64,000 nucleotides of DNA from an uncultured Solirubrobacteraceae bacterium (GCA_902806175.1 CADCVQ010000001.1:1-64000); one strand, 5' to 3'. Positions 15,235 through 27,193 are shown, counted from the stretch's first letter. Made by a program: numbers and translations. The notes: a model not told the origin generated them from the sequence alone.

Positions 15235-15693
15235 CTACGACTGGCTCTCGCGCATGCCCTTGACCGCCGCGGAGATCTCCTCGGCGTCGAGGACGTCGGC
15301 CATGATCCCGATCTGCTCTTCCCAGACGTCGTCTTCGACTTGACTGCGGAACTCTTCCTCGAGCGCGTGATACACGGAGAGACCCAACTGGGCCTCGGCC
15401 AGTGCACCTGCATAGGTCGGATCGCCGAGCACCACTGTCTCGGCGGCGATCTCTGCGCTCTCGGCGTCAGGAGCTCCGAGGATGACCACCAGTTGGTCTT
15501 TCCCGTGCTCGTCGGCGAGGCGCTTGATCGTTTCCTGGCTATTCAGGTCCATGGCCCCCGAGGCAGTTCAAACGAAGCACTCTGTCGACGCGAAGGCGAC
15601 GTTTCCGCCTGCGCTCTTGACGCATGCGGCGATCGCGGGGCCCGCGATCCCGTCGCGCTCACCGAGCACGATGACCTGCTTGCTCTCGAACAT
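15235..15693 (-). CDS. grdA: Selenoprotein A of glycine/sarcosine/betaine reductase
   Basis: 152 residues if UGA is read as selenocysteine at codon 42. The N-terminal part starts at ATG 15693 (MFESKQVIVLGERDGIAGPA) and leads into TECFV-Sec-TASGAMDL, which matches the redox centre of clostridial GrdA (CFV-Sec-TA). The rest (LVVILGAPDAESAEIAAE and ALAEAQLGLSVYHALEEEF) is collinear with GrdA to the stop. Protein A carries the carboxymethyl-selenoether between protein B and protein C and is re-reduced by thioredoxin. Taken without UGA readthrough it would be split into a 41-residue stub and a fragment from ATG 15552. A GAGGAGGTGA ribosome site lies inside the end of the thioredoxin gene. Last gene of the operon. 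Confidence 0.96.
15568..15570 (-). other. Selenocysteine UGA codon of grdA
   Basis: TCA on the plus strand, UGA in the mRNA, codon 42 of grdA, one residue after CFV. The frame stays open and homologous on both sides. The hairpin (SECIS) that SelB needs should lie just downstream; I could not identify a convincing one by eye. Confidence 0.95.
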
Positions 15694-15699
15694 AGGGTG

Positions 15700-16041
15700 C
15701 TAGCTCACCTCCTCTCTCATCTCGCCGAGGCTCTTGTCGAGCCAGTCTTTCAGCTCCGGCGGACTGATCGTCGAAGCCGACAACCGCGCCACCTCATCAC
15801 CGTCGTGCATGAGCAGGAAGGTCGGCAGCGCGTGCACGCCCAGGCGGATGCACACCCGGCGGGCCTTGGGCGCCTCGAGCATGACGACCGTCAGGTCGTC
15901 CCGTGCCTCAGCGATCTTCTCGACGTGGGGCTTCAGCGCCAGGCACGGCCGGCAGTCCGGGCCCCAGACGTCGACGAGCGTGGTACCGCTCTCGACAAGG
16001 GCGTCGAAGTTCTCGCGTGTCGCCTCGCTCACCGCTCCCAT
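15700..16041 (-). CDS. Thioredoxin-like protein of the reductase operon
   Basis: 113 residues of thioredoxin fold. The active site is CRPC in VDVWGPDCRPCLALKP (Cys30 and Cys33), with the cis-Pro segment ALPTFLLMHDGDEVARL. In clostridial grd operons the thioredoxin gene trxA reduces the selenosulfide of GrdA after each cycle, and the position here between grdC and grdA suggests the same job. The Arg between the cysteines (CGPC in ordinary thioredoxin) should alter its redox potential. No thioredoxin reductase gene is present in the operon, unlike clostridia. It ends 6 bases before the grdA start. Confidence 0.9.
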   Translation of the reverse strand: MGAVSEATRENFDALVESGTTLVDVWGPDCRPCLALKPHVEKIAEARDDLTVVMLEAPKARRVCIRLGVHALPTFLLMHDGDEVARLSASTISPPELKDWLDKSLGEMREEVS

Positions 16042-16045
16042 CCGT

Positions 16046-17482
16046 TCATCCTCCCGCTTGGTCGTTGGACTCGAGCAGCACGCTCATGCCGTCGGACTGC
16101 TCGGACATCCGCCCGAGGAACAGGCTGCCCTTGGCGATCAGCTGCACCCGCCGCGCACCCCCGTCCACCAGCCGGGCCCGCGCGTGCGGAACGTAACACA
16201 GCGCCGAGGCGATGTGGCCCTGCGTGGGAGCGAAGCCGGGCATCCCGTGTCTTTCGGAGAAATCGCTCATGTCCTCCCGGCCCAGCTCGCCGCGGCGCAC
16301 GGCGAGCGCGGCGAGCGTCTTGTAGTTGCGCTTGGGCACGTCACCCGAGCCCTGGGGCTCGGTGATCTCGGGATTGTGCAGCTCGGTGGCGTAGTCGTCG
16401 ACGTCGAGCATCCCGAGGCCGAGACGTTCGAGGGGAGCGACCGCGAGGGCCTCCATGATCTTCGGGGTCGACGACCCGGCGGCGACCGTATGCCGGCCCA
16501 CGGAGTCCAGTCGTACGCGCGGCGAGCGGCCGTCGTCGGCCTCCACGATCAGCGCACAGGCGCCGAGCACGTCCTCAAGCACCGGGAGGCCGTGCTTGAG
16601 GTGGCCCTGGAACTTCATCCCCAGCTTCGGGAGCGAGCCGCCCGCGACCACCGCGACGCGCTGGAAGACCCCGGCGGCGACGAGGCTGCTCGCGATCACC
16701 AGCGCCGGGAGCGGGGCGGCGCAGAAGTTCTTGACGTCACAGCCGGAGGCGTCGCTGCAGCCCGCCGCCGCCGCGACCGACTTGGCGAGGTTGCCCCCAC
16801 CGCGCTGGTAGCGGTCCCCGATCGCCTCCTCGCCGGCGCCGATGACGTAGTCGATCGAGGCGGGGTCGATGCCGTTGTCGGCGAGGAGGCGCAGGAGCGC
16901 CAGCGTGGCGCTCGCCTTCCCCGCGAGGTTCTCGAGCAGCACGTCCGCGGTCAGGGCGGCGTCGCTCTCGTGGCCGCGACGGAAGGCCCCGGCCAGGTGA
17001 TCGGCGCCGAGGTGCAGGCCCAGCGCCCCCGGCTCGGCCGCCACCGCTTCGGCGTCGCCGGCCGCGGCGGCCACGCGCTCGAGGTCGAGGTGCTCGGCGA
17101 GCGGATGGCGGGCGAGCCGCTCGGCGATCACGCCGGCCTCCTGCGCACCGAGCTTGACCAGGTCGAACTCGTCGACCGCCGCCAGCAGGCCGAGGAACTC
17201 GTCTTCGGACATGAGCTCACCGACGCCCGCGAAGCGGCCCTCGCCGTTGGGGGCTGCGTCGACCCACGGTCGCTCGGGCAGCTCCCGCGGGTGGAGGGCG
17301 CCGAGGAACGCCTGGTGGGGCGCGTAGGCCACCGCCTGCTCGAAGGTGCGCAGGGACCCCAGGAACGCCGCCTCGACCTCCGGGTCGCGCGCGAGCTCGC
17401 GCGACGGCTTGGAGCCGTGACGGGCGAGCCCGGGGACGTGGGCGAGGACCGCACTCGTGGCCGAGATCACAGGTATGGGCAT
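16046..17482 (-). CDS. grdC: Glycine/sarcosine/betaine reductase component C, beta subunit
   Basis: 478 residues, slightly short for GrdC (about 510). It begins ISATSAVLAHVPGLARHGSKPSRE, a GrdC hallmark, and has a thiolase/KAS III-like core (FCAAPLPALVIASSLVAAG, IPKLGMKF-like SLPKLGMKFQGHLKHGLP, and TQGHIASALCYVPHARARL). In clostridia, protein C takes the acetyl group from selenoprotein A and releases it as acetyl phosphate, working as a GrdC-GrdD pair with the acetyl-thioester on GrdD. No grdD follows here, so the partner is missing from this locus. Starts 7 bases after grdB. Confidence 0.92.
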   Translation of the reverse strand: MPIPVISATSAVLAHVPGLARHGSKPSRELARDPEVEAAFLGSLRTFEQAVAYAPHQAFLGALHPRELPERPWVDAAPNGEGRFAGVGELMSEDEFLGLLAAVDEFDLVKLGAQEAGVIAERLARHPLAEHLDLERVAAAAGDAEAVAAEPGALGLHLGADHLAGAFRRGHESDAALTADVLLENLAGKASATLALLRLLADNGIDPASIDYVIGAGEEAIGDRYQRGGGNLAKSVAAAAGCSDASGCDVKNFCAAPLPALVIASSLVAAGVFQRVAVVAGGSLPKLGMKFQGHLKHGLPVLEDVLGACALIVEADDGRSPRVRLDSVGRHTVAAGSSTPKIMEALAVAPLERLGLGMLDVDDYATELHNPEITEPQGSGDVPKRNYKTLAALAVRRGELGREDMSDFSERHGMPGFAPTQGHIASALCYVPHARARLVDGGARRVQLIAKGSLFLGRMSEQSDGMSVLLESNDQAGG

Positions 17483-17489
17483 GTGGTGC

Positions 17490-18788
17490 CTATTGAACCC
17501 GATCGCCGTCGAAGACGGTCGGCTCGCTGACCGGCGTGGCGACGGCGCGGAGCGCCCGTTCGAGCAGTTGCCGGCGCCAGGCGCGCTCCTGCTCGGGCCC
17601 GAGCTCCGGGTCTCCCGCCGGGAAGGGGATGCCGCGCGTGGGCACGATGCGCGGCGCGCCGACGCGCCTCGCGATCGAGACGAGGTTGCACAGCAGCGCG
17701 GTGGGGATCCCGGCGCGTTCCAGCTCTTTGCTCAGCGTTGACCCGCAACGCGTGCCGGTTCCTCAGGTGGCGGTGAGGATCGCCGCCTGGATGTTCTGCT
17801 GGCGCAGCTCGGCGGCCCACTCCATCCCGAAGCGGCGCGCGTCGGCGACCGTGGTGCCGTTGCCGGTCGTCGCCAGGAACTCGCCGTGCAGGCCTCCGAT
17901 CGCGCCCTCGCGCTCCAGCTCGCGGGCGACGTCGAGCGGGAGGATGCGGTTGGGATCGGCGTTGGCCCACTGGGTGGAGAAGCCGCCGTGCACGGACTCG
18001 AACGTGCCGCTCTCGGCCGAGTCGAGGCCGTCGAGCGAGTAGCGCACCCACTTCGACGCGCGCGCGGACTCCAGCCGGTCGGGGTTGCCGGCGGGCACGA
18101 AGCCGCCCTCCGTCACCAACGCGACCACCGCCTCGGTGATGTCGGCGACGGGCGCGGCCGGCGTCACGCGGTCGAAGTCGGGGAGGGGGATCTCGGTGGC
18201 GTCCCGGTCACCGCCGAGCCGCGTGAGCACGAGGGCGACCGCGCGCTCGGCCGCGCTGCGGTCCGCCAGGCGGTTGGTGCGCGCGACCGGGCCGATGCGC
18301 CCGTCCTCCGCGGTGAGCTGCTCCCCCGCGGCCACCTTGCGCGTCGCCGCGGCGAGGCGGTCGAGCGAGTCACGCATCTGGCGCGAGGTCGCGCCGCTCT
18401 CGACGACCGCCGTGCCGGCGGCCTCGCCCAGGCCGGGATTCTCGGGATGCATGGCGGCCAGGGCGGGCAGCCCCGCCTCGCTCGCCGCCACCGCGATCCG
18501 CGCGCAGGCCATGCCGTAGCGACCGCTGGTGAAGGCCGGGCCGGCCACCACCAGTTCGGCCCCGCGGTCGCGCGCGCTCGCGACGAGCTCGGCGGCGAAC
18601 TCGGGGTGCGAGGCGGCGTAGTCGTCGCCGCAGACGGCGGTGGCGACGATCTCGTGCTCGTCGCCGAGCACCGCGGCCAAGCGCCGCCCGGGTCCCAGGG
18701 CGCCGTCGCGCAGCTCTGGTCCGGTGCCCGCCGCGTCCTCGCCGCCGATGCCGGCGAAGAACTGGTTGACGTAGTGGACGATGCGCAT
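17490..18788 (-). CDS. grdB: Selenoprotein B (gamma subunit) of glycine/sarcosine/betaine reductase
   Basis: 432 residues with UGA as selenocysteine at codon 342. Start ATG 18788 overlaps the grdE stop (TGATG) and gives MRIVHYVNQFFAGIGGE, the usual GrdB opening. The active-site stretch is AILTAT-Sec-GTGTRCGSTL, after which the protein continues KELERAGIP and RIVPTRGIPFPAGDP to a TAG at 17490. Clostridial GrdB reads Sec-GTCTRCG as I recall it; here the first Cys is Gly. GrdB with GrdE binds the substrate amine and passes the two-carbon unit to GrdA. Whether glycine, sarcosine or betaine is the substrate cannot be told from sequence by eye. Ignoring Sec would truncate it at 17763. Confidence 0.96.
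17763..17765 (-). other. Selenocysteine UGA codon of grdB
   Basis: TCA on the plus strand, UGA in the mRNA, codon 342 of grdB, within TAT-Sec-GTGTRCG. Reading continues for 90 further family-like codons. Downstream bases about 17757-17739 can form only an imperfect hairpin by eye, so the SECIS is not proven. Confidence 0.95.
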
Positions 18789-20044
18789 CAGCCGGTCTCC
18801 GCGCACGTGAGCCGACCCCAGCCCAGCGTGCTCTGCGCGCAGTAGATCGCGGCCACGGGCAGCTCGACCTCGTCGGTGGAGGCCTGGTCGAGCAGGGCGA
18901 TGCGCTCGCGGCCCAGGGCCTGTTCGACGGCGGGCAGCGTCATACGCTCATCGTAGTTCCCGGTGCTGACGAGGGCCGTGGCCTTGGTCGGCGGGACCAC
19001 CAGCGGCGGCCCCGTCCCGTCGCGCCCCGCCATCTCCGCGAGGATCCCCACCGCCGTGATCCCCTCCTCCTCGAGGCGGTCGAGCTTGAGCGACACGTCG
19101 GCGTCGGCGTTGCCGCCGCCCTCCTTGGTCACGATCGCCGCGTCGAGCCCCAGCCCCGCGCACAGCCGCGCGGCGTGCGCCGAGACGAGCTCCTTGTTCG
19201 CCTGGTCGACGGGCTCGGGGCACAGCACGAGCGCTGCCAGCTCCAGCTCGTCGCAGCCGCGCAGGGCGGCGACCACCGGATGCGTCTGCTGCAGGTAGGT
19301 CGGGTTCTTCAGTGCGGGGTGGCCGTACTGGCCGCTGACCACCACCCCGTCGTCGAGCTCGCCGGGGGCGATGACGGTCGGCAGGCCGCCGGACAGGCTG
19401 CGCCCGTAGACGAAGACGTCCTTGAACTTGCCCTGGGTCTGGAGGTTGAGGACGACCCCCACGCGCGGTCTGTCGCTCGAGGTCGATCCGGGCTCGGGCA
19501 GCTCCTCCACGGCGTCGGGCGCGGCGTCCAGCGCCGCTTCGGCGAGGTGGGCCGCCACCCGCACGAGCCCGCGCCGCAGCGCCGCCTCGACGTCATCCCA
19601 GGCCGCGTCGTCGGCGGGCGTGAAGTCGACGACGAGGTTGTGGGTCGCGCTCAGCGGCGACAGCGGCGCCGCCGGCCCCGACATGTCGATGACCGCCTCC
19701 TGGGCGCGCGGAAGGTAGCCGGCGGCCAGCACGGCGGTGCCGCGCAGCACGTGGGTCTCACCGCGCCCCGCGGGCAGCGCGGGACCCAGCAGCCCGGGGA
19801 ACACGCCGCCCCCGCCGGGCCCCTTGGAGCAGGGCTGGATGGCGTCCAGCGCGCCGACGATCCGCACGGAGTCGCCCGGCGCGGCGCACGCCAGCCGGAC
19901 CTCGGCGAGCGCGGGGCCACGCAGGAGGTCGCGCACGCTCTCGTCGCCGACGGTCAGGCGCCCCGCGGAGTAGCTCGTGCGCTCGCCCAGGTCGAGCTCG
20001 CGCACCTCGTGGATCACCCGCGTGAGCCCGGCCTCCGCGTTCAT
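18788..20044 (-). CDS. grdE: Component B proprotein (alpha/beta) of glycine/sarcosine/betaine reductase
   Basis: 418 residues, close to the 428 usual for GrdE. Recognisable blocks: GVVLNLQTQGKFKDVFVYGR, KNPTYLQQTHPVVAAL, VTKEGGGNADADVSLKLDR and GIL-AEMAGRDGTGPPLV. Clostridial GrdE is a proprotein that self-cleaves at a Cys about 242 residues in, turning that Cys into a pyruvoyl group. Lining up the conserved Lys-Asn-x-Thr-Tyr, the residue at the cleavage Cys position here is Ala244 (HPALKNPTY). From memory of the family this is a loss of the processing residue. First gene of the operon; a GGAAGGA site lies about 9 bases before ATG 20044. It could equally be a GrdG or GrdI type; substrate class is open. 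Confidence 0.92.
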   Translation of the reverse strand: MNAEAGLTRVIHEVRELDLGERTSYSAGRLTVGDESVRDLLRGPALAEVRLACAAPGDSVRIVGALDAIQPCSKGPGGGGVFPGLLGPALPAGRGETHVLRGTAVLAAGYLPRAQEAVIDMSGPAAPLSPLSATHNLVVDFTPADDAAWDDVEAALRRGLVRVAAHLAEAALDAAPDAVEELPEPGSTSSDRPRVGVVLNLQTQGKFKDVFVYGRSLSGGLPTVIAPGELDDGVVVSGQYGHPALKNPTYLQQTHPVVAALRGCDELELAALVLCPEPVDQANKELVSAHAARLCAGLGLDAAIVTKEGGGNADADVSLKLDRLEEEGITAVGILAEMAGRDGTGPPLVVPPTKATALVSTGNYDERMTLPAVEQALGRERIALLDQASTDEVELPVAAIYCAQSTLGWGRLTCAETG

Positions 20045-20130
20045 CTGGCGAATCCTTCCAGATGTCGGGGAACCGGGGTGTTCCTGCGGGTGAGGCGCGG
20101 CACGTGCCGCGATATAGGGTGCGCCCGACC

Positions 20131-20232
20131 GTGCGCGTACACGTCGCCTACGCCGCCGAGTGGGAGCCGATTCCCTGGGAGCCGATTCCCGATGACGGCC
20201 GCGAGCGCTTCGACGAGCATCTGCCGCGCTGA
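20131..20232 (+). other. Short open frame with a 15-base tandem repeat
   Basis: A GTG-started 33-codon frame divergent from grdE. It contains two perfect copies of TGGGAGCCGATTCCC (20161-20175 and 20176-20190), giving the peptide repeat WEPIP. There is no known family and no clear ribosome site. It may be a chance frame; the repeat is real. Confidence 0.35.
20161..20190 (+). repeat. Two tandem copies of a 15-base unit
   Basis: TGGGAGCCGATTCCC occurs twice without spacer, about 120 bases upstream of grdE. Each copy has short inverted ends (GGGA...TCCC), so an operator role for the divergent region is possible though unproven. Confidence 0.75.
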
Positions 20233-20299
20233 GCGTACGCTCGCCGGCTGCGGAGCGCTGCCTCGCGAGGAGCTGGGAAAGCCGCCGCGGGCTCGTGCA

Positions 20300-20425
20300 G
20301 ATACGACGTTCAGCGGCACGCCCTCTCGCGCGATCTCGGCGGCGTGCGCATGACGCAGCTGGTGTGGAGCAAGCGGCGACCGCACCCCGGCCTTGGCTGC
20401 CGTGGCTACACGCTGGGGCCGGTCG
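20300..20425 (-). pseudogene. Tyrosine-recombinase (integrase) C-terminal remnant
   Basis: On the minus strand about 42 codons read RVATAAKAGVRSPLAPHQLR then HAHAAEIAREGVPLNVV. This is the HxLRH catalytic block of XerD/phage-type integrases with the following helix. The resemblance stops at about 20303 and nothing integrase-like remains on either side, so only a fragment survives. It lies directly upstream of the grd operon, between it and the sel genes, and hints that the region was once mobile. Confidence 0.6.
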
Positions 20426-20529
20426 CAGCCCTAGCTTTCGATGATGTTTCGAACGTCAGCGGACGGCTTCCGACACGCCGAGCCCCTTCAGAACCTGCCC
20501 GGCAATCCCGTCTGGTGTGAAGGCGGCCG

Positions 20530-20931
20530 TCAGGCGGACTCCACGACCCAGATGTGGTTGGCGTCGGGATCCTCGATGGAGAACATCCGCGGCACCGGGC
20601 CGTCGCCGCCCATCATCTCGCCGGTCTTGACGCCGTCGATTGCCTGGACGCGCGCGTACTCCGCCTCGACGTCGGGCGTCTCGACTCCGATCGCGCTGCC
20701 GCCGGGCGCCCAGTCGCCCATCGGAGGGTTGAGCGCCAGGCGGGCCGTCGAGCCCGGCGGGGCGACCTCGACCCAGCGGTTGCCGCCCTCGTCGCCGAAC
20801 GGAACGTCGGCGCGCAGCTCCCAGCCGAGCGTCTGGGTGTAGTAGGCGATCGCCGCGTCCTGATCGGCGATCGTGAACATCGCGACGCCGATGTTCGAGA
20901 TGGTGGTGGATGCGTGCGTGGGATTGCTCAT
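20530..20931 (-). CDS. VOC (glyoxalase/bleomycin-resistance) family protein
   Basis: 133 residues from ATG 20931. Two beta-alpha-beta-beta-beta modules: TISNIGVAMFTIADQDAAIA with FYTQTLGW-like YYTQTLGWELR, and SAIGVETPDVEAEYARVQ with FSIEDPDANHIWVVESA. The final Glu and a mid-region residue are potential metal ligands. Such proteins are metal-dependent isomerases, dioxygenases or resistance proteins; no specific function can be given. It sits between the integrase remnant and two unknown genes. Confidence 0.85.
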   Translation of the reverse strand: MSNPTHASTTISNIGVAMFTIADQDAAIAYYTQTLGWELRADVPFGDEGGNRWVEVAPPGSTARLALNPPMGDWAPGGSAIGVETPDVEAEYARVQAIDGVKTGEMMGGDGPVPRMFSIEDPDANHIWVVESA

Positions 20932-21238
20932 ACCACTGTGACTCTGGCACTCGCGCAAACTCATCGCAACGAGATCGCCGACCGCCGGATGTGCGATCGG
21001 GCCCGTCGACCAGCCGGGCTGATGCGCGTCTTCGCCAGGCGTTCCGAGCGCGAGCACTCCGGGGGTGTCCTCATCGCAGTGCCGCTCGAGAGAGTCCGAC
21101 CGGCATAGCTGCTGCAAGGACCGGAGGGTCCCCCCTCACGACGAGCGGGGGTAGCCGTGTACGGCCGTGGCGCGAGCGCTCCTCCTCGCGCGATCTGGGT
21201 TTCTCGCGCGACCGGTAGGAAGCGAGTCTCCTTGAACC
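20932..21238. other. Gene-free stretch
   Basis: About 307 bases between the divergent VOC gene and the tandem unknown genes. It must hold both promoters; I see no RNA gene or strong palindrome. Confidence 0.4.
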
Positions 21239-22003
21239 GTGAGCAAAGGATGGCGGCTCGGCGCCCTGACCGATGCGCAGACGGCTCCGTTCAGAGAGCG
21301 CCTCGAGCGGGCGATCGCAGAGCGAGCAGGCGACGAGCCCACCGTCTTCGACGAGCGTCTGGCCGACCGAGCGCGAGCGCTGCTCGAGCTTCGCCTCGAG
21401 GCGGTGCGCGAGGGCCCCGATCTGCCGCGAATGCCTCCCGAGTTCTTCGAGCACCCGCCGCCGTCTGATCCACGTCACCGGGAGGCGATCGATCGCTTCG
21501 AGCAGCTCCACTCGGCCTGCGAGGCTTGCCGCGTGCTGTGCGGTGGTGAGCTCGCCGAATGGCGGCGGCGCTTGGTCGAGGCAGACGACGGGCGCGATTG
21601 GCACCTGGAGCGCGAGCGGCGCCAGAAGCGCTTCATGCTGAGCGAGCTGGTTGCCGTCGTCCCCGGTCCGCCGACTCGGCCTGGTCAGGTTCAGATCACG
21701 ACGGCGGAGCTCTACACCGACGGCGTGGTGCTGCGCTGGCACGAGGCGGGAGGCTCACGCGCTGGAGGACCTGGGCGGGACGCTGCTCGCCGCACGGATG
21801 ACCGACGCCGTCACGTCTCGCTCTCAGACGACCTCGCCACGCCATATCTCCACTTTCACACCTTGGAGGGGCACTCCTTCGCGGCCGTCTCGTGGACCGC
21901 GGACTTCGCCACGCCGGTGCCCACCCGGGCGCGCGAGCTCGTCGTAGCGATCCGCAGCGAGCGCTTCGTGATGCCGCTCCAGAATTACGGAGCGCGTCGG
22001 TGA
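21239..22003 (+). CDS. Unknown protein, tandem paralogue 1
   Basis: 254 residues from GTG 21239. I do not recognise the family. The N-terminal half is helical and charged; the C-terminal half is beta-rich (VQITTAELYTDGVVLRWHE; LATPYLHFHTLEGHSFAAVS) and resembles the C-terminal half of the next gene. Residues encoded at about 21755-21825 (GGPGRDAARRTDDRRRH) look odd, and the next frame reads better there (ALEDLGGTLLAARMTDAV), so two compensating frameshifts or errors are possible. A pair CEAC plus Cys at about residues 94-101 could be incidental. Its stop overlaps the next start. Confidence 0.6.
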   Translation: MSKGWRLGALTDAQTAPFRERLERAIAERAGDEPTVFDERLADRARALLELRLEAVREGPDLPRMPPEFFEHPPPSDPRHREAIDRFEQLHSACEACRVLCGGELAEWRRRLVEADDGRDWHLERERRQKRFMLSELVAVVPGPPTRPGQVQITTAELYTDGVVLRWHEAGGSRAGGPGRDAARRTDDRRRHVSLSDDLATPYLHFHTLEGHSFAAVSWTADFATPVPTRARELVVAIRSERFVMPLQNYGARR

Positions 22004-22830
22004 GCGCCGAGCCGCACGCACTCGCCGTCAAGAGGCTCGGGCGATCGCTCGCGCGCACCCATCCCGGCATTCACCGCGACGTGCTCGCCCACTGGCTTGG
22101 CGTTCTCGACGCGTTCGTGGAGCTCGGGGTGATCGACGCCGAGGACGTCGCGGACTGGACCGCGCGCTTCGAGCGCGCCGCGCAGGCGCTCGAGCCGGTC
22201 AGTGCGGAGGTTCAGGCGCGTGCCGTCGAGCTGCTCGAGCGAGAGCTCCAAAGCGCAGCGCGAGCCGCTGAGCGAGCTCATCGGCTCCGAGCGCGCGAGT
22301 CGTTCATGGTAAAGCTGCAGGCCCTGCTCGAGACGGGAAGCATCGCTTGGAGCGACAGAAGCGCCTGGGTCGAGAAGCTCGACGCGGTGGTTCCCGACAC
22401 CGCACCGCGCCGTGCGGGGCCGCCGTATGACGGAGCAGAGCTGCGGGCGGTCATAGTCGGTCCTGAGCGCCGGCTCGGCGGGCTGCGAATCAGCTCGGCG
22501 GAGGTCTACGACGACTGCGTGATCGTCCGCTGGCACCTCGTGGTCGACGCGGACGAGCATCGGCGCGGGCGGGTGGCGGCACCCGACCATGTCAGTGACT
22601 TGACCCGCGCCTACGGTCCCCGCTCCCTCGAGGACGATGCCGGAACCGCCTACGCGCTCGGGCCGGGCGAGATGTGGGCAATGCCGAGCGTCCTGCACCT
22701 CGACCAGCGACGGCCGGTGCTGCCCGGCGCCTCGGCCTTCACCCCCGGACCTCCAGAGACCGCGACGCGACTCTTAGTCGCATGCGCCGCCGGAGAAGTC
22801 CAGCTGAGCCTGGAGGGCGCCGCAAACTGA
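22000..22830 (+). CDS. Unknown protein, tandem paralogue 2
   Basis: 276 residues from GTG 22000, which overlaps the preceding stop (GTGA), so the two are translationally coupled. Family unknown. The C-terminal half (LRISSAEVYDDCVIVRWHLV and SLEDDAGTAYALGPGE) parallels paralogue 1 (ITTAELYTDGVVLRWHE and SDDLATPY). The N-terminal half is helical (HWLGVLDAFVELGVIDAEDV). No signal peptide or membrane helix. Together with paralogue 1 it could form a heteromeric complex; nothing links it to selenium other than position. Confidence 0.65.
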   Translation: MSAEPHALAVKRLGRSLARTHPGIHRDVLAHWLGVLDAFVELGVIDAEDVADWTARFERAAQALEPVSAEVQARAVELLERELQSAARAAERAHRLRARESFMVKLQALLETGSIAWSDRSAWVEKLDAVVPDTAPRRAGPPYDGAELRAVIVGPERRLGGLRISSAEVYDDCVIVRWHLVVDADEHRRGRVAAPDHVSDLTRAYGPRSLEDDAGTAYALGPGEMWAMPSVLHLDQRRPVLPGASAFTPGPPETATRLLVACAAGEVQLSLEGAAN

Positions 22831-23224
22831 CGGGGAGCTGATCGCTCCCCGGCTCCTCGAACGGGGGAACTCTCGCGTGGCGCCGGTGACGCCCTCTGGC
22901 GCAGCGGAGCGGGAGTCGCACTTCCCGGAAGTGGCGGTCCCGCCACCCGGGTGGACGAGCTTGCGCAACGAATCGCGCGAGGCCGGCGTCACAGCAGTCC
23001 CTTGATGTCGGCCCGCACGCTTCCGCCGTGGATCGAAGACCGCTTGGACCGCCTCTGGCGTGGACGGCGCCTGGCTTCCGAGTCGGGCGCGGCCGCGCCT
23101 GCGTGGCGGCAGGAACGGGTATGGCGCGGGACGCGCTAGCGTTGGGCCGGTTCGCCGACGCCTGACGACGACCGCAAACCGTGTGCTTCGACGCCCATCC
23201 GATCCCTCGCCCGGTCCTACGCTC
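22831..23224. other. Leader region of the sel genes, no gene seen
   Basis: About 394 bases before selD. It must contain the promoter of selD, because the next genes follow without gaps. I see no recognisable protein, RNA or clear -35/-10 pair; short open frames here look random. Confidence 0.4.
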
Positions 23225-24256
23225 GTGAGCGCGCCGCACGCTGCGGGACCCGTCGCGCTGACGTCGCTTTCGCACGGCGCGGGCTGCGGATGCAAGCTGC
23301 CGGCGGCGGCGCTGCTGCCGATCGTCCGGGGGCTGCCCGCCGTCGCCGAGCCGCGGCTGCTCGTCGGCTCCAACACCGCCGACGACGCCGCGGTGTTCAA
23401 GCTGACCGACGAGATCGCGCTCGTGATGACGATCGACTTCTTCACGCCGATCGTCGACGACCCCTACGACTTCGGCCGGATCGCGGCGGCGAACGCGCTC
23501 TCCGACGTCTACGCGATGGGCGGGCTGCCGCTGGCGGCGATGAACGTCGTCGCCTTTCCGCTCGAGCAGCTCGGCGGTGACATCCTGCGCGAGATCATGC
23601 GGGGTGGGGCCGACGTCGCCGCGGCTGCGGGGATCTCGATCGTCGGCGGCCACTCGATCGACGACCCGGAGCCGAAGTACGGCCTGGCCGTGACCGGAAC
23701 CGTGCATCCCGCCGAAGTGATCTCCAACGCGGGGGCGCACGCAGGTGACCTTCTCGTGCTGACCAAGCCGCTGGGGGTCGGCGCGATCACGACGGCGCGC
23801 AAGCGCGGCCGGCGCGACGACGACCTGCTCGCAAGGGCGGTTGCGACGATGAGCGCGCTCAACGACTCGGCGTCCGCGGCGGCGCGCGCGGCCGGCGCCA
23901 GCGCGATGACCGACGTCACCGGCTTCGGGCTGCTCGGCCATCTGCACTCGCTGGGGTGCGCGAGCGACGTCGCGGCGGTGATCGACGCGTCGGCCGTGCC
24001 GGCGATCGACGGCGTGCTGGAGCTGCTCGAGGGCGACGACGCCGTCTCGGGCGGCAGCCGGCGCAACCGCGCGCACGCCGAGACCTTCACGACGTTCGCC
24101 GACGACGTCGCCGAACCGCGCCGGCGCCTGCTGTGCGACGCCACGACGTCGGGCGGGCTGCTCGTCGCGGTCGCGCCCGAGGCCGCTTCCTCGCTGCCGG
24201 GCCCGATCGTCGGCGATATCGTCGCCGGTGAGCCCGGCGCCATCGCCGTGCGATGA
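23225..24256 (+). CDS. selD: Selenide, water dikinase (selenophosphate synthetase)
   Basis: 343 residues from GTG 23225; upstream in-frame sequence is not family-like. The catalytic N-terminus is LSHGAGCGCKLP, with Cys21 and Lys24 equivalent to Cys17 and Lys20 of the E. coli enzyme, so this SelD is a Cys form and not itself a selenoprotein. Downstream blocks are typical: GSNTADDAAVFKL, VMTIDFFTPIVDDPYDFG, SDVYAMGG, GGHSIDDPEPKYGL and MTDVTGFGLLGHL. It makes selenophosphate from selenide and ATP for SelA. It ends 26 bases before the tRNA-Sec gene, and order and strand suggest one transcript with tRNA-Sec, selA and selB. Confidence 0.96.
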   Translation: MSAPHAAGPVALTSLSHGAGCGCKLPAAALLPIVRGLPAVAEPRLLVGSNTADDAAVFKLTDEIALVMTIDFFTPIVDDPYDFGRIAAANALSDVYAMGGLPLAAMNVVAFPLEQLGGDILREIMRGGADVAAAAGISIVGGHSIDDPEPKYGLAVTGTVHPAEVISNAGAHAGDLLVLTKPLGVGAITTARKRGRRDDDLLARAVATMSALNDSASAAARAAGASAMTDVTGFGLLGHLHSLGCASDVAAVIDASAVPAIDGVLELLEGDDAVSGGSRRNRAHAETFTTFADDVAEPRRRLLCDATTSGGLLVAVAPEAASSLPGPIVGDIVAGEPGAIAVR

Positions 24257-24282
24257 TCGCCCAGCTCGGGCTACATCACCTT

Positions 24283-24373
24283 GGAGCGGCCCGGGCCCGG
24301 TGGCCCATCCGGTCTTCAAAACCGGCGGGGCGCGGCACACCGCGCTGGAAGGTTCGACTCCTTCGCCGTTCCG
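24283..24373 (+). tRNA. selC: tRNA-Sec, anticodon UCA
   Basis: 91 bases. The acceptor stem has 8 perfect pairs (24283-24290 with 24365-24372, one G-U) and discriminator G24373. The D stem is 24293-24296 with 24303-24306. The anticodon stem is 24309-24313 with 24321-24325 and the loop CTTCAAA carries TCA at 24316-24318. The long variable arm has 6 perfect pairs (24330-24335 with 24340-24345). The T arm is 24348-24352 with 24360-24364 around TTCGACT. The 8-pair acceptor, long extra arm and UCA anticodon are diagnostic. No CCA is encoded. The selA ATG starts one base after the discriminator. Confidence 0.97.
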
Positions 24374-24374
24374 T

Positions 24375-25676
24375 ATGAGCCCGCGCGACCGGCTGCGCGG
24401 CCTGCCGTCGGTCGACCGGCTGGCGACCGCGGTGGCGCGCGCGGAGCTGGAGGCGCGGCGCGAGGAACTGCTCGACGGCGGTGATGCGGTCGACGACACG
24501 ACGGTCGACCTGGTGGCGCGCGCGCGGGCGCGCCTGCGCCCGCGGCTGCGGCGCGTGCTCAACGCGACCGGCGTCGTCGTCCACACGAACCTCGGTCGGG
24601 CCCCGCTCGCCGCCGAGGCGCAAGCCGCGGTCGCGGCCGTCGCGGACGGCTACTGCAACCTCGAGCTCGACCTCGCCGCGGGAGCGCGCGGATCGCGGCA
24701 GGCGCATGTCGAGGAGCTGCTGCGTGAGCTGACCGGCGCGCAGGCGGCCCTCGCGGTCAACAACTGCGCGGCGGCGGTGCTGCTGGCCTGCGCCGCGCTG
24801 GCTGGAGGCCGCGACGTCGTCGTCTCGCGGGGGCAGCTGATCGAGATCGGCGGCGGCTTCCGGATCCCCGAGATCCTCGAGCTCGCGGGCACGCGGCTCG
24901 TCGAGGTGGGCACGACGAACCGGACGCGCCGCGCCGACTACGAGGCGGCACTGGCGGCCGGGGGCGAGCGCATCGGGGCCATCCTGCGCGCGCATCCCTC
25001 GAACTTCCGAACCGTCGGCTTCGTCGCCGAGGTGGAGATCGAGGAGCTCTGTGAGCTGGGCGCAGCGGTGATCGACGACGTAGGCTCGGGCGTGCTCACG
25101 GACGACCTCGAGCTGCTCGCGGGCGAGCCGCCGGTGCGCCGATCGGTCGGCGCCGGCGCCGCGCTCACGGCGTTCTCGGGCGACAAGCTGCTCGGCGGAC
25201 CGCAGGCGGGGATGCTGGTCGGAACGCGCGCGGCCGTTGAGGCGTGCCGCCGCCATCCGCTCGCGCGGGCCGTACGAATCGACAAGCTGTCGCTCGCCGC
25301 GCTCGAGGCGACCCTCGCCCTTCATCGCGACCCGGTGGCCGCGCGCCGCACACTGCCGGTGCTTGCGATGCTCGAAGCCGACGACGCGACGCTGAGCAGG
25401 CGCGCACACGAGCTGGCGGCCACGACCGGGGGCACGGTCGTCGCGTCGACGGCGCGTGTCGGCGGCGGCGCACTGCCGCTGCTGGAACTGCCGGGGCCGG
25501 CGGTCGCGATCGACCCGGGCCCGGCCGGCGCGACCGCGCTCGCGGCGGAGCTGCGGGCAGGCGATCCGGCCGTTGTGGGCCGTCTGCACGACGGCCGGCT
25601 GCTGCTCGACCCGCGCACGCTGACAGACGACGAGGCGCGCGAGGTGGCGCGCGCGGTGCGCGCGGTGTTGCCGTGA
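24375..25676 (+). CDS. selA: L-seryl-tRNA(Sec) selenium transferase
   Basis: 433 residues from ATG 24375, which gives the normal opening [14 protein letters not shown]. Family blocks: [69 protein letters not shown], and the PLP lysine Lys271 in [13 protein letters not shown]. SelA is a PLP-dependent homodecamer that replaces the hydroxyl of Ser-tRNA-Sec with selenol from selenophosphate. Its start is one base beyond the tRNA-Sec end, so any Shine-Dalgarno would have to lie within the tRNA T-arm (GGAAGG at 24347-24352). It overlaps selB by GTGA. Confidence 0.97.
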
Positions 25677-27193
25677 GCGTCGAGCCGGCCCTGACGCTCG
25701 GGACGGCCGGCCATATCGACCACGGCAAGACGGCGCTCGTGCGCGCGCTGACCGGGGTGGACACCGACCGCCTGCCCCAGGAGAAGGCGCGCGGCATGTC
25801 GATCGAGCTCGGGTTCGCGCCCCTGCTGCTGCCCGGAGGGCAGCACGTCTCGGTCGTCGACGTGCCGGGCCACGAGCGCTTCGTGCGGACGATGGTTGCC
25901 GGAGCGACCGGGATCGACTTCCATCTCATGGTCGTCGCCGCCGACGACGGCGTGATGCCTCAGACGCTCGAGCACGCGGAGGTGCTCGCGGCACTGGGGA
26001 TCGAACAGGGCGTCGTCGCGATCACCAAGTGCGACCGCGCGTCCCCGCAACGAGCCGCCGCGGAAGCCGCCGAGTTGCTCCCCGGCGCCGAGGTCGTGGC
26101 GTGCTCGGCGCGCACAGGCGAGGGCGTGGCGGCCGTCGCGGCGGCGCTGGAGCGCGTGGCGGAGCGTGTGACGCCACACGCCGCAGGACGTCGGGGGGGC
26201 GCGGCCGTGCTGCACATCGACCGCGCCTTCACGATCCACGGCGCCGGCACGGTCGTCACCGGGACGCTGCGGTCGGGCAGCCTGGCCGTGGGCGATACAC
26301 CGGCCCTGCTGCCGGCGCAGCGGCTCGTCCGAGTGCGATCGCTGCAGGTGCACGACCAGCCGGCCGAGCGGGCGCACGCGGGGCAGCGCATTGCAGTCGG
26401 TCTCGCCGGGATCGCACTGCGCGACGTCGCCCGCGGTGATGCGCTCGCCGATCGGGCGGCGGCGCTCGCGCCGACGCAGGTCATCGACGCGGCGCTGGAC
26501 CTCCGCGACGATCTGCACGGCCGGCGCGTCATGGTGCATCACGGCACGCGGGCGGCGCCGGCGCGGCTGGCGGCGCTCGGCGGCGGCCTGTGGCAGGTGC
26601 GCCTAGAGGCGCCGCTGCTCGCCGCCGCGGGCGACCGGCTCGTCGTGCGCTCGGTCGCGCCGCCCGACACGCTCGCCGGCGGCACCGTGCTCGATCCGCG
26701 GGCCCGCCGCCATGGTCGCCGCCCCGACGTGCTCGCGCGCCTCGAGCGGCTACGGCGCGGTGAGCCGGAGCCTTCGCCGGTAGCGCCGCCGGCGGTCGCC
26801 GCACCAGCCGGTCCGGCGACCGCCGCGGCCTCTTCGGCGCCGGCGCTCGAATCGGGCGCGACCGAGCTCGCAGAGCGGCTGCTCGCGGCCGGCCATGAGC
26901 CGCCCTCGCGCTCAGAGCTGGGTGCTGCCGCGGCGCATCTCCCCGCGCTGATGCACGCGGGCGTCGCCGTCCGTATCGGCCGTGACCTCTACGCGCACCG
27001 CGACGCGCTCGCGGTCGTCGCTGATCGCGCCGGCGCAATCATCGCCAGCGAGGGCGCCGTGACGCTCGCGCGGCTCCGTGACGAGCTCGGGACCTCCCGC
27101 AAGTACGCCGAGGCGCTGCTCGAGCATCTCGACGCGGCGCGCTACACCAAGCGCCTGCCCGATGACCGCCGCGTGCTGCGCCGCCGGCACTAG
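25673..27193 (+). CDS. selB: Selenocysteine-specific translation elongation factor
   Basis: 506 residues from GTG 25673. GTPase motifs: G1 [16 protein letters not shown]3 [13 protein letters not shown]4 TKCD. Beta-barrel domains follow ([17 protein letters not shown]). After a Pro/Ala linker (about residues 360-385) comes a C-terminal winged-helix part ([12 protein letters not shown] and [20 protein letters not shown]). E. coli SelB is 614 residues with four winged helices; here only about 120 residues remain after the linker, room for about two, and the last pair that binds the SECIS hairpin appears kept. It carries Sec-tRNA to the ribosome at UGA. Its stop overlaps the convergent rhodanese stop by 3 bases. 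Confidence 0.95.

What the first reader, a model, noticed from the sequence alone, without database searches (positions are those of the whole stretch)
18788..20044. GrdE homologue appears to lack the pyruvoyl-forming cysteine
Clostridial GrdE cleaves itself at a Cys near residue 242, which becomes a pyruvoyl group needed for substrate binding. Lining up the conserved Lys-Asn-x-Thr-Tyr puts Ala244 there (HPALKNPTY). If right, this component B is either unprocessed or uses other chemistry. The comparison is from memory of the clostridial sequence.
Basis: partly seen in the sequence, partly recalled or inferred. Interest (0 to 1): 0.7.

Follow-up and report, generated by a model that had tools for sequence, protein, structure and literature searches.

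The report
Selenium reductase subunit without pyruvoyl cysteine
A soil actinobacterium carries a selenium-dependent, glycine-reductase-like enzyme whose GrdE-type subunit lacks the cysteine that clostridia turn into a pyruvoyl cofactor; the loss runs through a whole clade, so it is a real and conserved variant, although other family members without that cysteine were already known.

Summary
The minus-strand ORF 20044-18788 is a full-length PF09338 protein (418 aa) without a processing cysteine. Cys242 of an Acetoanaerobium GrdE aligns with Tyr240, not Ala244; Ala244 aligns with the second conserved cysteine, Cys246. Both are gone. All 56 clade sequences tabulated (Solirubrobacteraceae, Thermoleophilaceae, Acidimicrobiales, Pseudonocardiales and others) have Tyr/Phe (one Leu) at the first column, Ala/Gly/Ser at the second, and a new invariant His-Pro between them.

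"Needed for substrate binding" is disputed in the literature.

The change comes as a package. Partner GrdB has ATUGTGTRC instead of STUGTCTRC and other altered motifs. GrdD, the second subunit of the acetyl-phosphate-forming component C, is undetectable in 20 reductase-bearing actinobacterial genomes. The window's genome also lacks acetate kinase and a recognisable Pta. The clade is separate from GrdE/GrdG and GrdI (SH-aLRT 99).

Verdict: new variant of a known kind, most likely a single-chain, pyruvoyl-free component B of a self-contained Sec reductase. Substrate unknown.

The parts
18788..20044 (-). GrdE-like component-B subunit (PF09338), 418 aa, without the processing cysteine
   Evidence: PF09338 E 1.3e-90; translation; best curated NCBIfam models GrdG 198 bits and FarE 117 bits, both far below cut-off
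19325..19327 (-). Tyr240 codon (TAC), aligned with the pyruvoyl-forming Cys242 of Acetoanaerobium GrdE and with the PrdA site Cys
   Evidence: Y/F in 55 of 56 clade members, Leu in one
19313..19315 (-). Ala244 codon (GCA), aligned with the second conserved cysteine, Cys246
   Evidence: A/G/S in 56 of 56 clade members
19316..19321 (-). His242-Pro243, new invariant pair in the site loop
   Evidence: HP in 56 of 56 clade members; GrdE has Ser244-Ala245 there
17490..18788 (-). GrdB-like selenoprotein (PF07355), 432 aa with in-frame UGA; start codon overlaps the grdE-like stop (TGATG)
   Evidence: PF07355 E 4.1e-115; read through UGA, Sec342
17763..17765 (-). Sec342 UGA in motif ATUGTGTRC; clostridial GrdB, GrdF and GrdH have STUGTCTRC
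16046..17482 (-). GrdC, component C subunit beta (478 aa); candidate active-site Cys254 kept
   Evidence: NF040746 561.5 bits, cut-off 450; KNFC/RGFC alignment with E. gilvus GrdC
15700..16041 (-). thioredoxin with CRPC motif
   Evidence: PF00085 E 1.8e-14
15235..15693 (-). GrdA selenoprotein A, Sec42 in CFVU
   Evidence: PF04723 E 1.1e-36; UGA read-through
23060..24256 (+). selD (selenide, water dikinase)
   Evidence: TIGR00476 386 bits
24283..24373 (+). tRNA-Sec (anticodon TCA)
   Evidence: ARAGORN
24372..25676 (+). selA (start approximate)
   Evidence: TIGR00474 458 bits
25676..27193 (+). selB (start approximate)
   Evidence: TIGR00475 312 bits, over cut-off

Best explanation
This is the GrdE-type subunit of component B in a self-contained, selenocysteine-dependent reductase found in uncultured soil Actinomycetota: five genes E, B, C, thioredoxin, A. 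It most likely stays one 43-kDa chain and carries no pyruvoyl group. The site loop is not decayed but rebuilt (aromatic residue, Gly, His-Pro, small residue). With the GrdB changes (STUG to ATUG, first Cys of CxxC lost) this points to a component B that does not hold its substrate as a Schiff base on a protein carbonyl: Sec342 of the GrdB partner attacks C2 of an acetate derivative bound by other contacts, perhaps Tyr240/His242. The carboxymethyl group then passes to GrdA-Sec42, and GrdC takes the acetyl group as a thioester while thioredoxin re-reduces GrdA. Because GrdD is undetectable across the clade, and acetate kinase and a recognisable Pta are missing from the window's genome, the acetyl group probably does not leave as acetyl phosphate for ATP synthesis; transfer to CoA is my guess. 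Shown here: sequence anatomy, clade-wide conservation, GrdD/AckA/Pta search results, Sec machinery. Inferred: no cleavage, Schiff-base-free chemistry, direction of carbon flow. Unknown: the substrate.
For: Alignment with GrdE, GrdG, GrdI and PrdA references puts Y240/A244 at Cys242/Cys246. The states are uniform in 56 clade sequences, with invariant His-Pro. The family search, which is blind to the site, found 25 places in 23 Actinomycetota genomes; none of the aligned sequences that span the site has Cys at the Cys242 column. GrdB is ATUGTGTRC in most of the clade, with coordinated changes in other motifs. The clade is one side of a branch with SH-aLRT 99. The gene order E-B-C-(Trx)-A recurs, with no other gene in more than 7 of 56 loci. 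GrdD: 0 of 20 genomes over cut-off, best 33 bits against 552-581 in two positive controls. AckA absent from the window genome and from 6 of the 8 other reductase-bearing relatives. Pta: only a 26-bit fragment in the window genome. SelB over cut-off in all 9 reductase-bearing genomes of the relatives set. AF2 model confident (mean pLDDT 86), less so around residues 241-250 (mean 67), as for a loop. Precedent: GrdI and FarE are described as not proproteins (PMC10838667).
Against: No biochemistry exists for this clade; absence of cleavage is inferred from one column. From memory and not verified here (the paper is not held), in vitro work on C. sticklandii GrdE reported cleavage even of Cys242 substitution mutants in borohydride, so absence of Cys alone may not forbid peptide cleavage, only pyruvoyl formation. 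The Ser of STUG as carbonyl source is itself only a published suggestion, and some clade members keep STUG. AckA is present in 2 of 9 reductase-bearing genomes of the relatives set. GrdD absence rests on HMM searches of incomplete draft genomes.
Confidence: 0.7

Rival explanations
1. It is an ordinary glycine reductase in substrate; the GrdE pyruvoyl is dispensable for glycine reduction and was simply lost.
For: GrdB keeps the TxGNxT motif shared with glycine-type GrdB, whereas sarcosine and betaine types have TGT. No dedicated transporter is linked, as expected for a central metabolite. Literature gives the GrdE products a stabilising role (PMC3091704; PMC9908766).
Against: The published glycine-GrdB motif fails at GPxF[NF]AGRYG (here GPAFTSGRYG) and at AHGGxD (here VHGGFS). 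STUG is ATUG. No GrdD, no AckA and no recognisable Pta to harvest acetyl phosphate.
Confidence: 0.25
2. It is a betaine-type (GrdI) subunit; the quaternary amine cannot form a Schiff base, so no pyruvoyl is needed and an aromatic residue holds the trimethylammonium group.
For: GrdI also lacks both cysteines and has an aromatic residue (Phe) at the Cys242 column. PMC10838667 names GrdI as not a proprotein.
Against: Not in the GrdI clade. The partner lacks the GrdH signatures RAGRYG, HAGFD and GTGTTQAE. No BCCT transporter in the window genome or 60 relatives, and none linked.
Confidence: 0.2
3. It is a FarE/FarB-like haloacetate reductase.
For: FarE also lacks both cysteines and FarB lacks CxxC, the nearest published match to the double change seen here.
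Against: NF053623 FarE model scores 117 bits against a cut-off of 675, below what the same protein scores against GrdG. No conserved farA transporter or farC radical-SAM neighbour. FarE sequences themselves could not be fetched.
Confidence: 0.12
4. It is still processed, at another residue: for example a Ser-derived pyruvoyl at conserved Ser237, or a His-Pro cleavage.
For: Ser237 is conserved three residues upstream; His-Pro is new and invariant. Classical pyruvoyl enzymes use Ser (PMC9908766).
Against: The same Ser is present in GrdE and GrdG, where cleavage is at Cys242 instead. No tool result indicates cleavage.
Confidence: 0.1
5. A decaying or mis-assembled gene.
For: The genome is a fragmented draft of 183 contigs.
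Against: Open full-length frame; same states in 56 sequences from independent assemblies; site loop invariant at G241, H242, P243, L245, N247.
Confidence: 0.02

Closest known systems
GrdI, betaine reductase component B subunit (E. gilvus L034, A. noterae L036)
   Same: PF09338; next to a Sec GrdB-type gene; no Cys at either site column; aromatic residue at the Cys242 column; described as not a proprotein (PMC10838667)
   Different: 31% identity; separate clade; GrdI has PCSSKWSTY where the window has HPALKNPTY; GrdH keeps STUGTCTRC; the E. gilvus GrdI operon includes grdD and a BCCT transporter
FarE/FarB, fluoroacetate reductase of Synergistota
   Same: FarE lacks both cysteines, FarB lacks CxxC (PMC10838667)
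   Different: NF053623 117 bits against cut-off 675; no far-type transporter or radical SAM gene; FarEB is predicted to rely on A and C proteins encoded elsewhere, here A, C and Trx are in the operon
GrdE, glycine reductase proprotein of Clostridium/Acetoanaerobium
   Same: PF09338; system with GrdB, thioredoxin, GrdA, GrdC; KNPTY after the site
   Different: 32% identity; Cys242 and Cys246 replaced by Tyr240 and Ala244; partner GrdB without CxxC; no GrdD
GrdG, sarcosine reductase proprotein (P. acidaminophilum)
   Same: PF09338; highest-scoring curated NCBIfam model (198 bits, cut-off 780)
   Different: GrdG has both cysteines (SGNCVAPCDK); separate clade

Membership tests
GrdE/GrdG-type pyruvoyl proprotein | PF09338 domain over the whole protein | tested here: met
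   E 1.3e-90, 13-414 of 418
GrdE/GrdG-type pyruvoyl proprotein | pyruvoyl-forming Cys242 | tested here: not met
   Tyr240
GrdE/GrdG-type pyruvoyl proprotein | second conserved Cys246 | tested here: not met
   Ala244
GrdE/GrdG-type pyruvoyl proprotein | self-cleavage into two subunits with N-terminal carbonyl | not testable with these tools
   needs protein
GrdI (betaine reductase) | no site cysteines | tested here: met
GrdI (betaine reductase) | groups with GrdI in a tree | tested here: not met
   own clade, SH-aLRT 99; GrdI separate at 100
GrdI (betaine reductase) | partner with GrdH motifs; betaine transporter | tested here: not met
   no BCCT
FarE (fluoroacetate reductase) | curated model score over cut-off | tested here: not met
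   116.7 against 675 bits
FarE (fluoroacetate reductase) | both cysteines absent, partner without CxxC | tested here: met
   Y240/A244; partner UGTGTRC
FarE (fluoroacetate reductase) | tree position next to FarE | not tested
   no FarE sequence could be fetched
Glycine/sarcosine/betaine reductase system (components A, B, C) | Sec GrdA, Sec GrdB, GrdC, thioredoxin, Sec machinery | tested here: met
Glycine/sarcosine/betaine reductase system (components A, B, C) | GrdD, second subunit of the acetyl-phosphate-forming component C | tested here: not met
   0 of 20 genomes over cut-off, two positive controls at 552-581 bits; direct protein search empty in own genome
Glycine/sarcosine/betaine reductase system (components A, B, C) | acetyl-phosphate to ATP by acetate kinase | tested here: not met
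   no PF00871 in the window genome (97% complete); absent from 7 of 9 reductase-bearing genomes of the relatives set, the window's included

The most novel reading that the evidence does not exclude
A previously undescribed branch of the glycine-reductase superfamily in soil Actinomycetota uses a carbonyl-free, CxxC-free component B on a substrate not among glycine, sarcosine, betaine, proline or fluoroacetate, and without GrdD hands the acetyl group to CoA instead of making acetyl phosphate, so the pathway is assimilatory or a redox sink rather than an ATP-yielding Stickland reaction.
Probability: 0.25. Interest if true: 0.75.

Novelty: new variant of a known kind. Interest (0 to 1): 0.5.

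Why it matters
Glycine reductase is the textbook selenoenzyme of strict anaerobes that make ATP from amino acids. A coherent clade in uncultured soil actinobacteria keeps the selenium core (A, B, C, thioredoxin, Sec insertion genes) but lacks the pyruvoyl cysteine and the GrdB CxxC, GrdD is undetectable, and most of the close relatives tested, the window's genome included, lack acetate kinase. That gives a natural test of what the pyruvoyl group is for, an open question in the literature (substrate binding or support of GrdB), and suggests an unrecognised carbon or redox pathway in common soil lineages. These proteins are at risk of being annotated as plain glycine or sarcosine reductase subunits.

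Tried and rejected
Sequencing error or pseudogene: rejected, same states in 56 sequences. Processing Cys elsewhere: none of the other cysteines lies at the site or is invariant. Solved-structure relatives: none by sequence for E or B, none by fold at E<=0.001. Bednarski 2001, the primary processing paper, is not held. Conserved neighbours as a clue to the substrate: nothing besides the core in more than 7 of 56 loci. SECIS: a stem-loop after the GrdB UGA (z -2.1), none clear after the GrdA UGA; weak evidence, not used. The third sequence in that fold call was not placed on a UGA and is ignored. Note that one of the two patterns of the genome-contig scan contains the site loop, so that set leans towards the state; the family searches do not have this bias.

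Full report
What is there. The finding's interval is an ORF on the minus strand, 20044 to 18788, 418 aa, matching PF09338 (Glycine/sarcosine/betaine reductase component B subunits) over its whole length at 1.3e-90. Its stop overlaps the start of a PF07355 GrdB gene (TGATG) that runs through an in-frame UGA (Sec342) to 17490. GrdC (16046-17482), a thioredoxin (15700-16041) and GrdA with Sec42 in CFVU (15235-15693) follow on the same strand. On the other strand lie selD, a tRNA-Sec (24283-24373), selA and selB. So this is a complete selenocysteine system with its own Sec machinery nearby.

The site. I fetched named references from plasmid-class records: GrdE and GrdI of Acetoanaerobium noterae, GrdG of Peptoclostridium acidaminophilum (annotated), the GrdI-type protein of Enterococcus gilvus next to annotated grdH and a BCCT transporter, and PrdA-type proteins. 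The GrdE and GrdI labels on the unannotated A. noterae record are mine, from similarity, neighbouring Sec genes, and the presence of GrdB and GrdH listed for C. sticklandii. In the alignment GrdE reads SGN-C242-VSA-C246-DKNPTY (numbering counted) and the window SGQ-Y240-GHP-A244-LKNPTY. PrdA's site Cys aligns with the first of the two, and the published C. difficile pyruvoyl peptide, GrdE 242-266, still contains a carbamidomethylated Cys (PMC9908766). The conclusion that no processing Cys is present stands for either residue.

More than chance. The window genome has a second copy, and PF09338 searches of 60 relatives and of 396 genomes of the phylum gave 25 places in 23 Actinomycetota genomes; none of the aligned sequences that span the site has Cys at the Cys242 column. 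One named scan of GTDB species genomes gave 51 loci, nearly all Actinomycetota MAGs (Solirubrobacteraceae, Thermoleophilaceae, Acidimicrobiales, Pseudonocardiales), plus Dormibacterota, Methylomirabilota and one distant Desulfobacterales. Over 56 tabulated clade sequences (a few genomes appear twice, under the two kinds of search): Y 32, F 23, L 1 at the Cys242 column; A 33, G 13, S 10 at the Cys246 column; His-Pro between them in all 56. In a 35-row alignment G241, H242, P243, L245 and N247 are invariant. The loop is under strong constraint, so it has been rebuilt rather than lost.

A coordinated package. Clostridial-type GrdB, GrdF and GrdH references all read STUGTCTRC; the clade's GrdB reads ATUGTGTRC in most members and STUGTGTRC in some, losing the first Cys of CxxC. 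Around it, GPAF[NR]AGRYG becomes GPAF[TGSA]SGRYG, VTSGG becomes VTEGG or similar, and the Asp of HGGYD/HAGFD becomes Ser or Ala, while TxGNxT, a glycine-type signature, is kept. GrdC is full length and keeps the candidate active-site Cys254. GrdD is not detectable: none of 20 reductase-bearing actinobacterial genomes passes the cut-off (best 33 bits, PlsX-like range), while two positive-control records give 552 and 581 bits. The window genome has no acetate kinase and only a 26-bit fragment for Pta. Acetate kinase is also absent from 6 of the other 8 reductase-bearing relatives, but present in 2.

Kinship. In a 53-row tree rooted on PrdA-type proteins the clade is one side of a branch with SH-aLRT 99; GrdI forms another (100), and the two GrdE plus two GrdG rows a third (89). 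An aromatic residue at the Cys242 column also occurs in GrdI, in two further actinobacterial sequences (L065/L066, which keep Cys at the second column) and in the Desulfobacterales sequence. The cysteine thus appears to be a feature of the GrdE/GrdG and PrdA lineages, not of PF09338 as a whole; how often it was lost or gained cannot be settled with this sampling. The tree is a short search with long branches, so deep branching order is not relied on.

What it probably does. PMC10838667 reports that FarE and betaine GrdI lack both cysteines and are not proproteins, and that FarB lacks CxxC. By analogy the window protein most likely stays a single chain without pyruvoyl. Together with the loss of the STUG serine, a suggested carbonyl source in GrdB, this points to chemistry without a Schiff base, in which Sec of GrdB attacks the substrate directly. 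Undetectable GrdD, with acetate kinase and a recognisable Pta missing from the window genome, argues against release of acetyl phosphate for ATP; transfer of the acetyl group from GrdC to CoA is a guess. The substrate is open. TxGNxT hints at glycine, the aromatic residue at betaine, the double change at a haloacetate, and no conserved transporter or enzyme neighbour decides.

Structure. No PDB relative by sequence. The AF2 model is confident (mean pLDDT 86), with lower confidence around residues 241-250 (67), as for a loop, and it has no PDB fold match at E<=0.001. A solved structure of this family would be informative.

Verdict. Observation real, with the residue corrected. Interpretation partly right but with known precedents. 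What is new is the clade and the package (pyruvoyl-free E, CxxC-free B, no detectable GrdD) in soil actinobacteria. I found no paper describing it in the open-access library searched, which does not hold most subscription journals.

Noticed in passing
window 18788-27193 and L047 (G000 contig 55): The genome holds two grd operons, each next to sel genes and with shared flanking gene order (grdE 87% identical, grdB 86%). In a fragmented draft this may be a contig of a near relative binned in by mistake rather than a duplication.
   Followed up: partly
20 actinobacterial genomes with the reductase: GrdD is undetectable in every genome tested, although GrdC and GrdA are present in the operons.
   Followed up: yes
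L065/L066 (G384, G357, family f34): A second non-canonical actinobacterial type: Tyr at the Cys242 column but Cys at the Cys246 column, GrdB with STUGTGTRC or STUGTSTRC, linked to an aldehyde dehydrogenase-like gene, a sugar-kinase-like gene and a DMT-type transporter-like gene (my reading of the sequences, not run through a family search). Substrate unknown.
   Followed up: partly
L023, L024, L025: Very divergent PF09338 proteins in other Actinomycetota families, with no Cys at the Cys242 column.
   Followed up: no
L010/L011 (G033:C40): The grdE-like frame is split into two overlapping frames in this draft genome, probably a frameshift in the assembly.
   Followed up: no
model m0808267e2b88: Confident AF2 model of the PF09338 protein has no PDB fold match at E<=0.001.
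   Followed up: partly
window 20530-21117 (-): Glyoxalase-family protein about 0.5 kb upstream of the operon, same strand; it does not belong to a gene cluster shared with the other loci.
   Followed up: no
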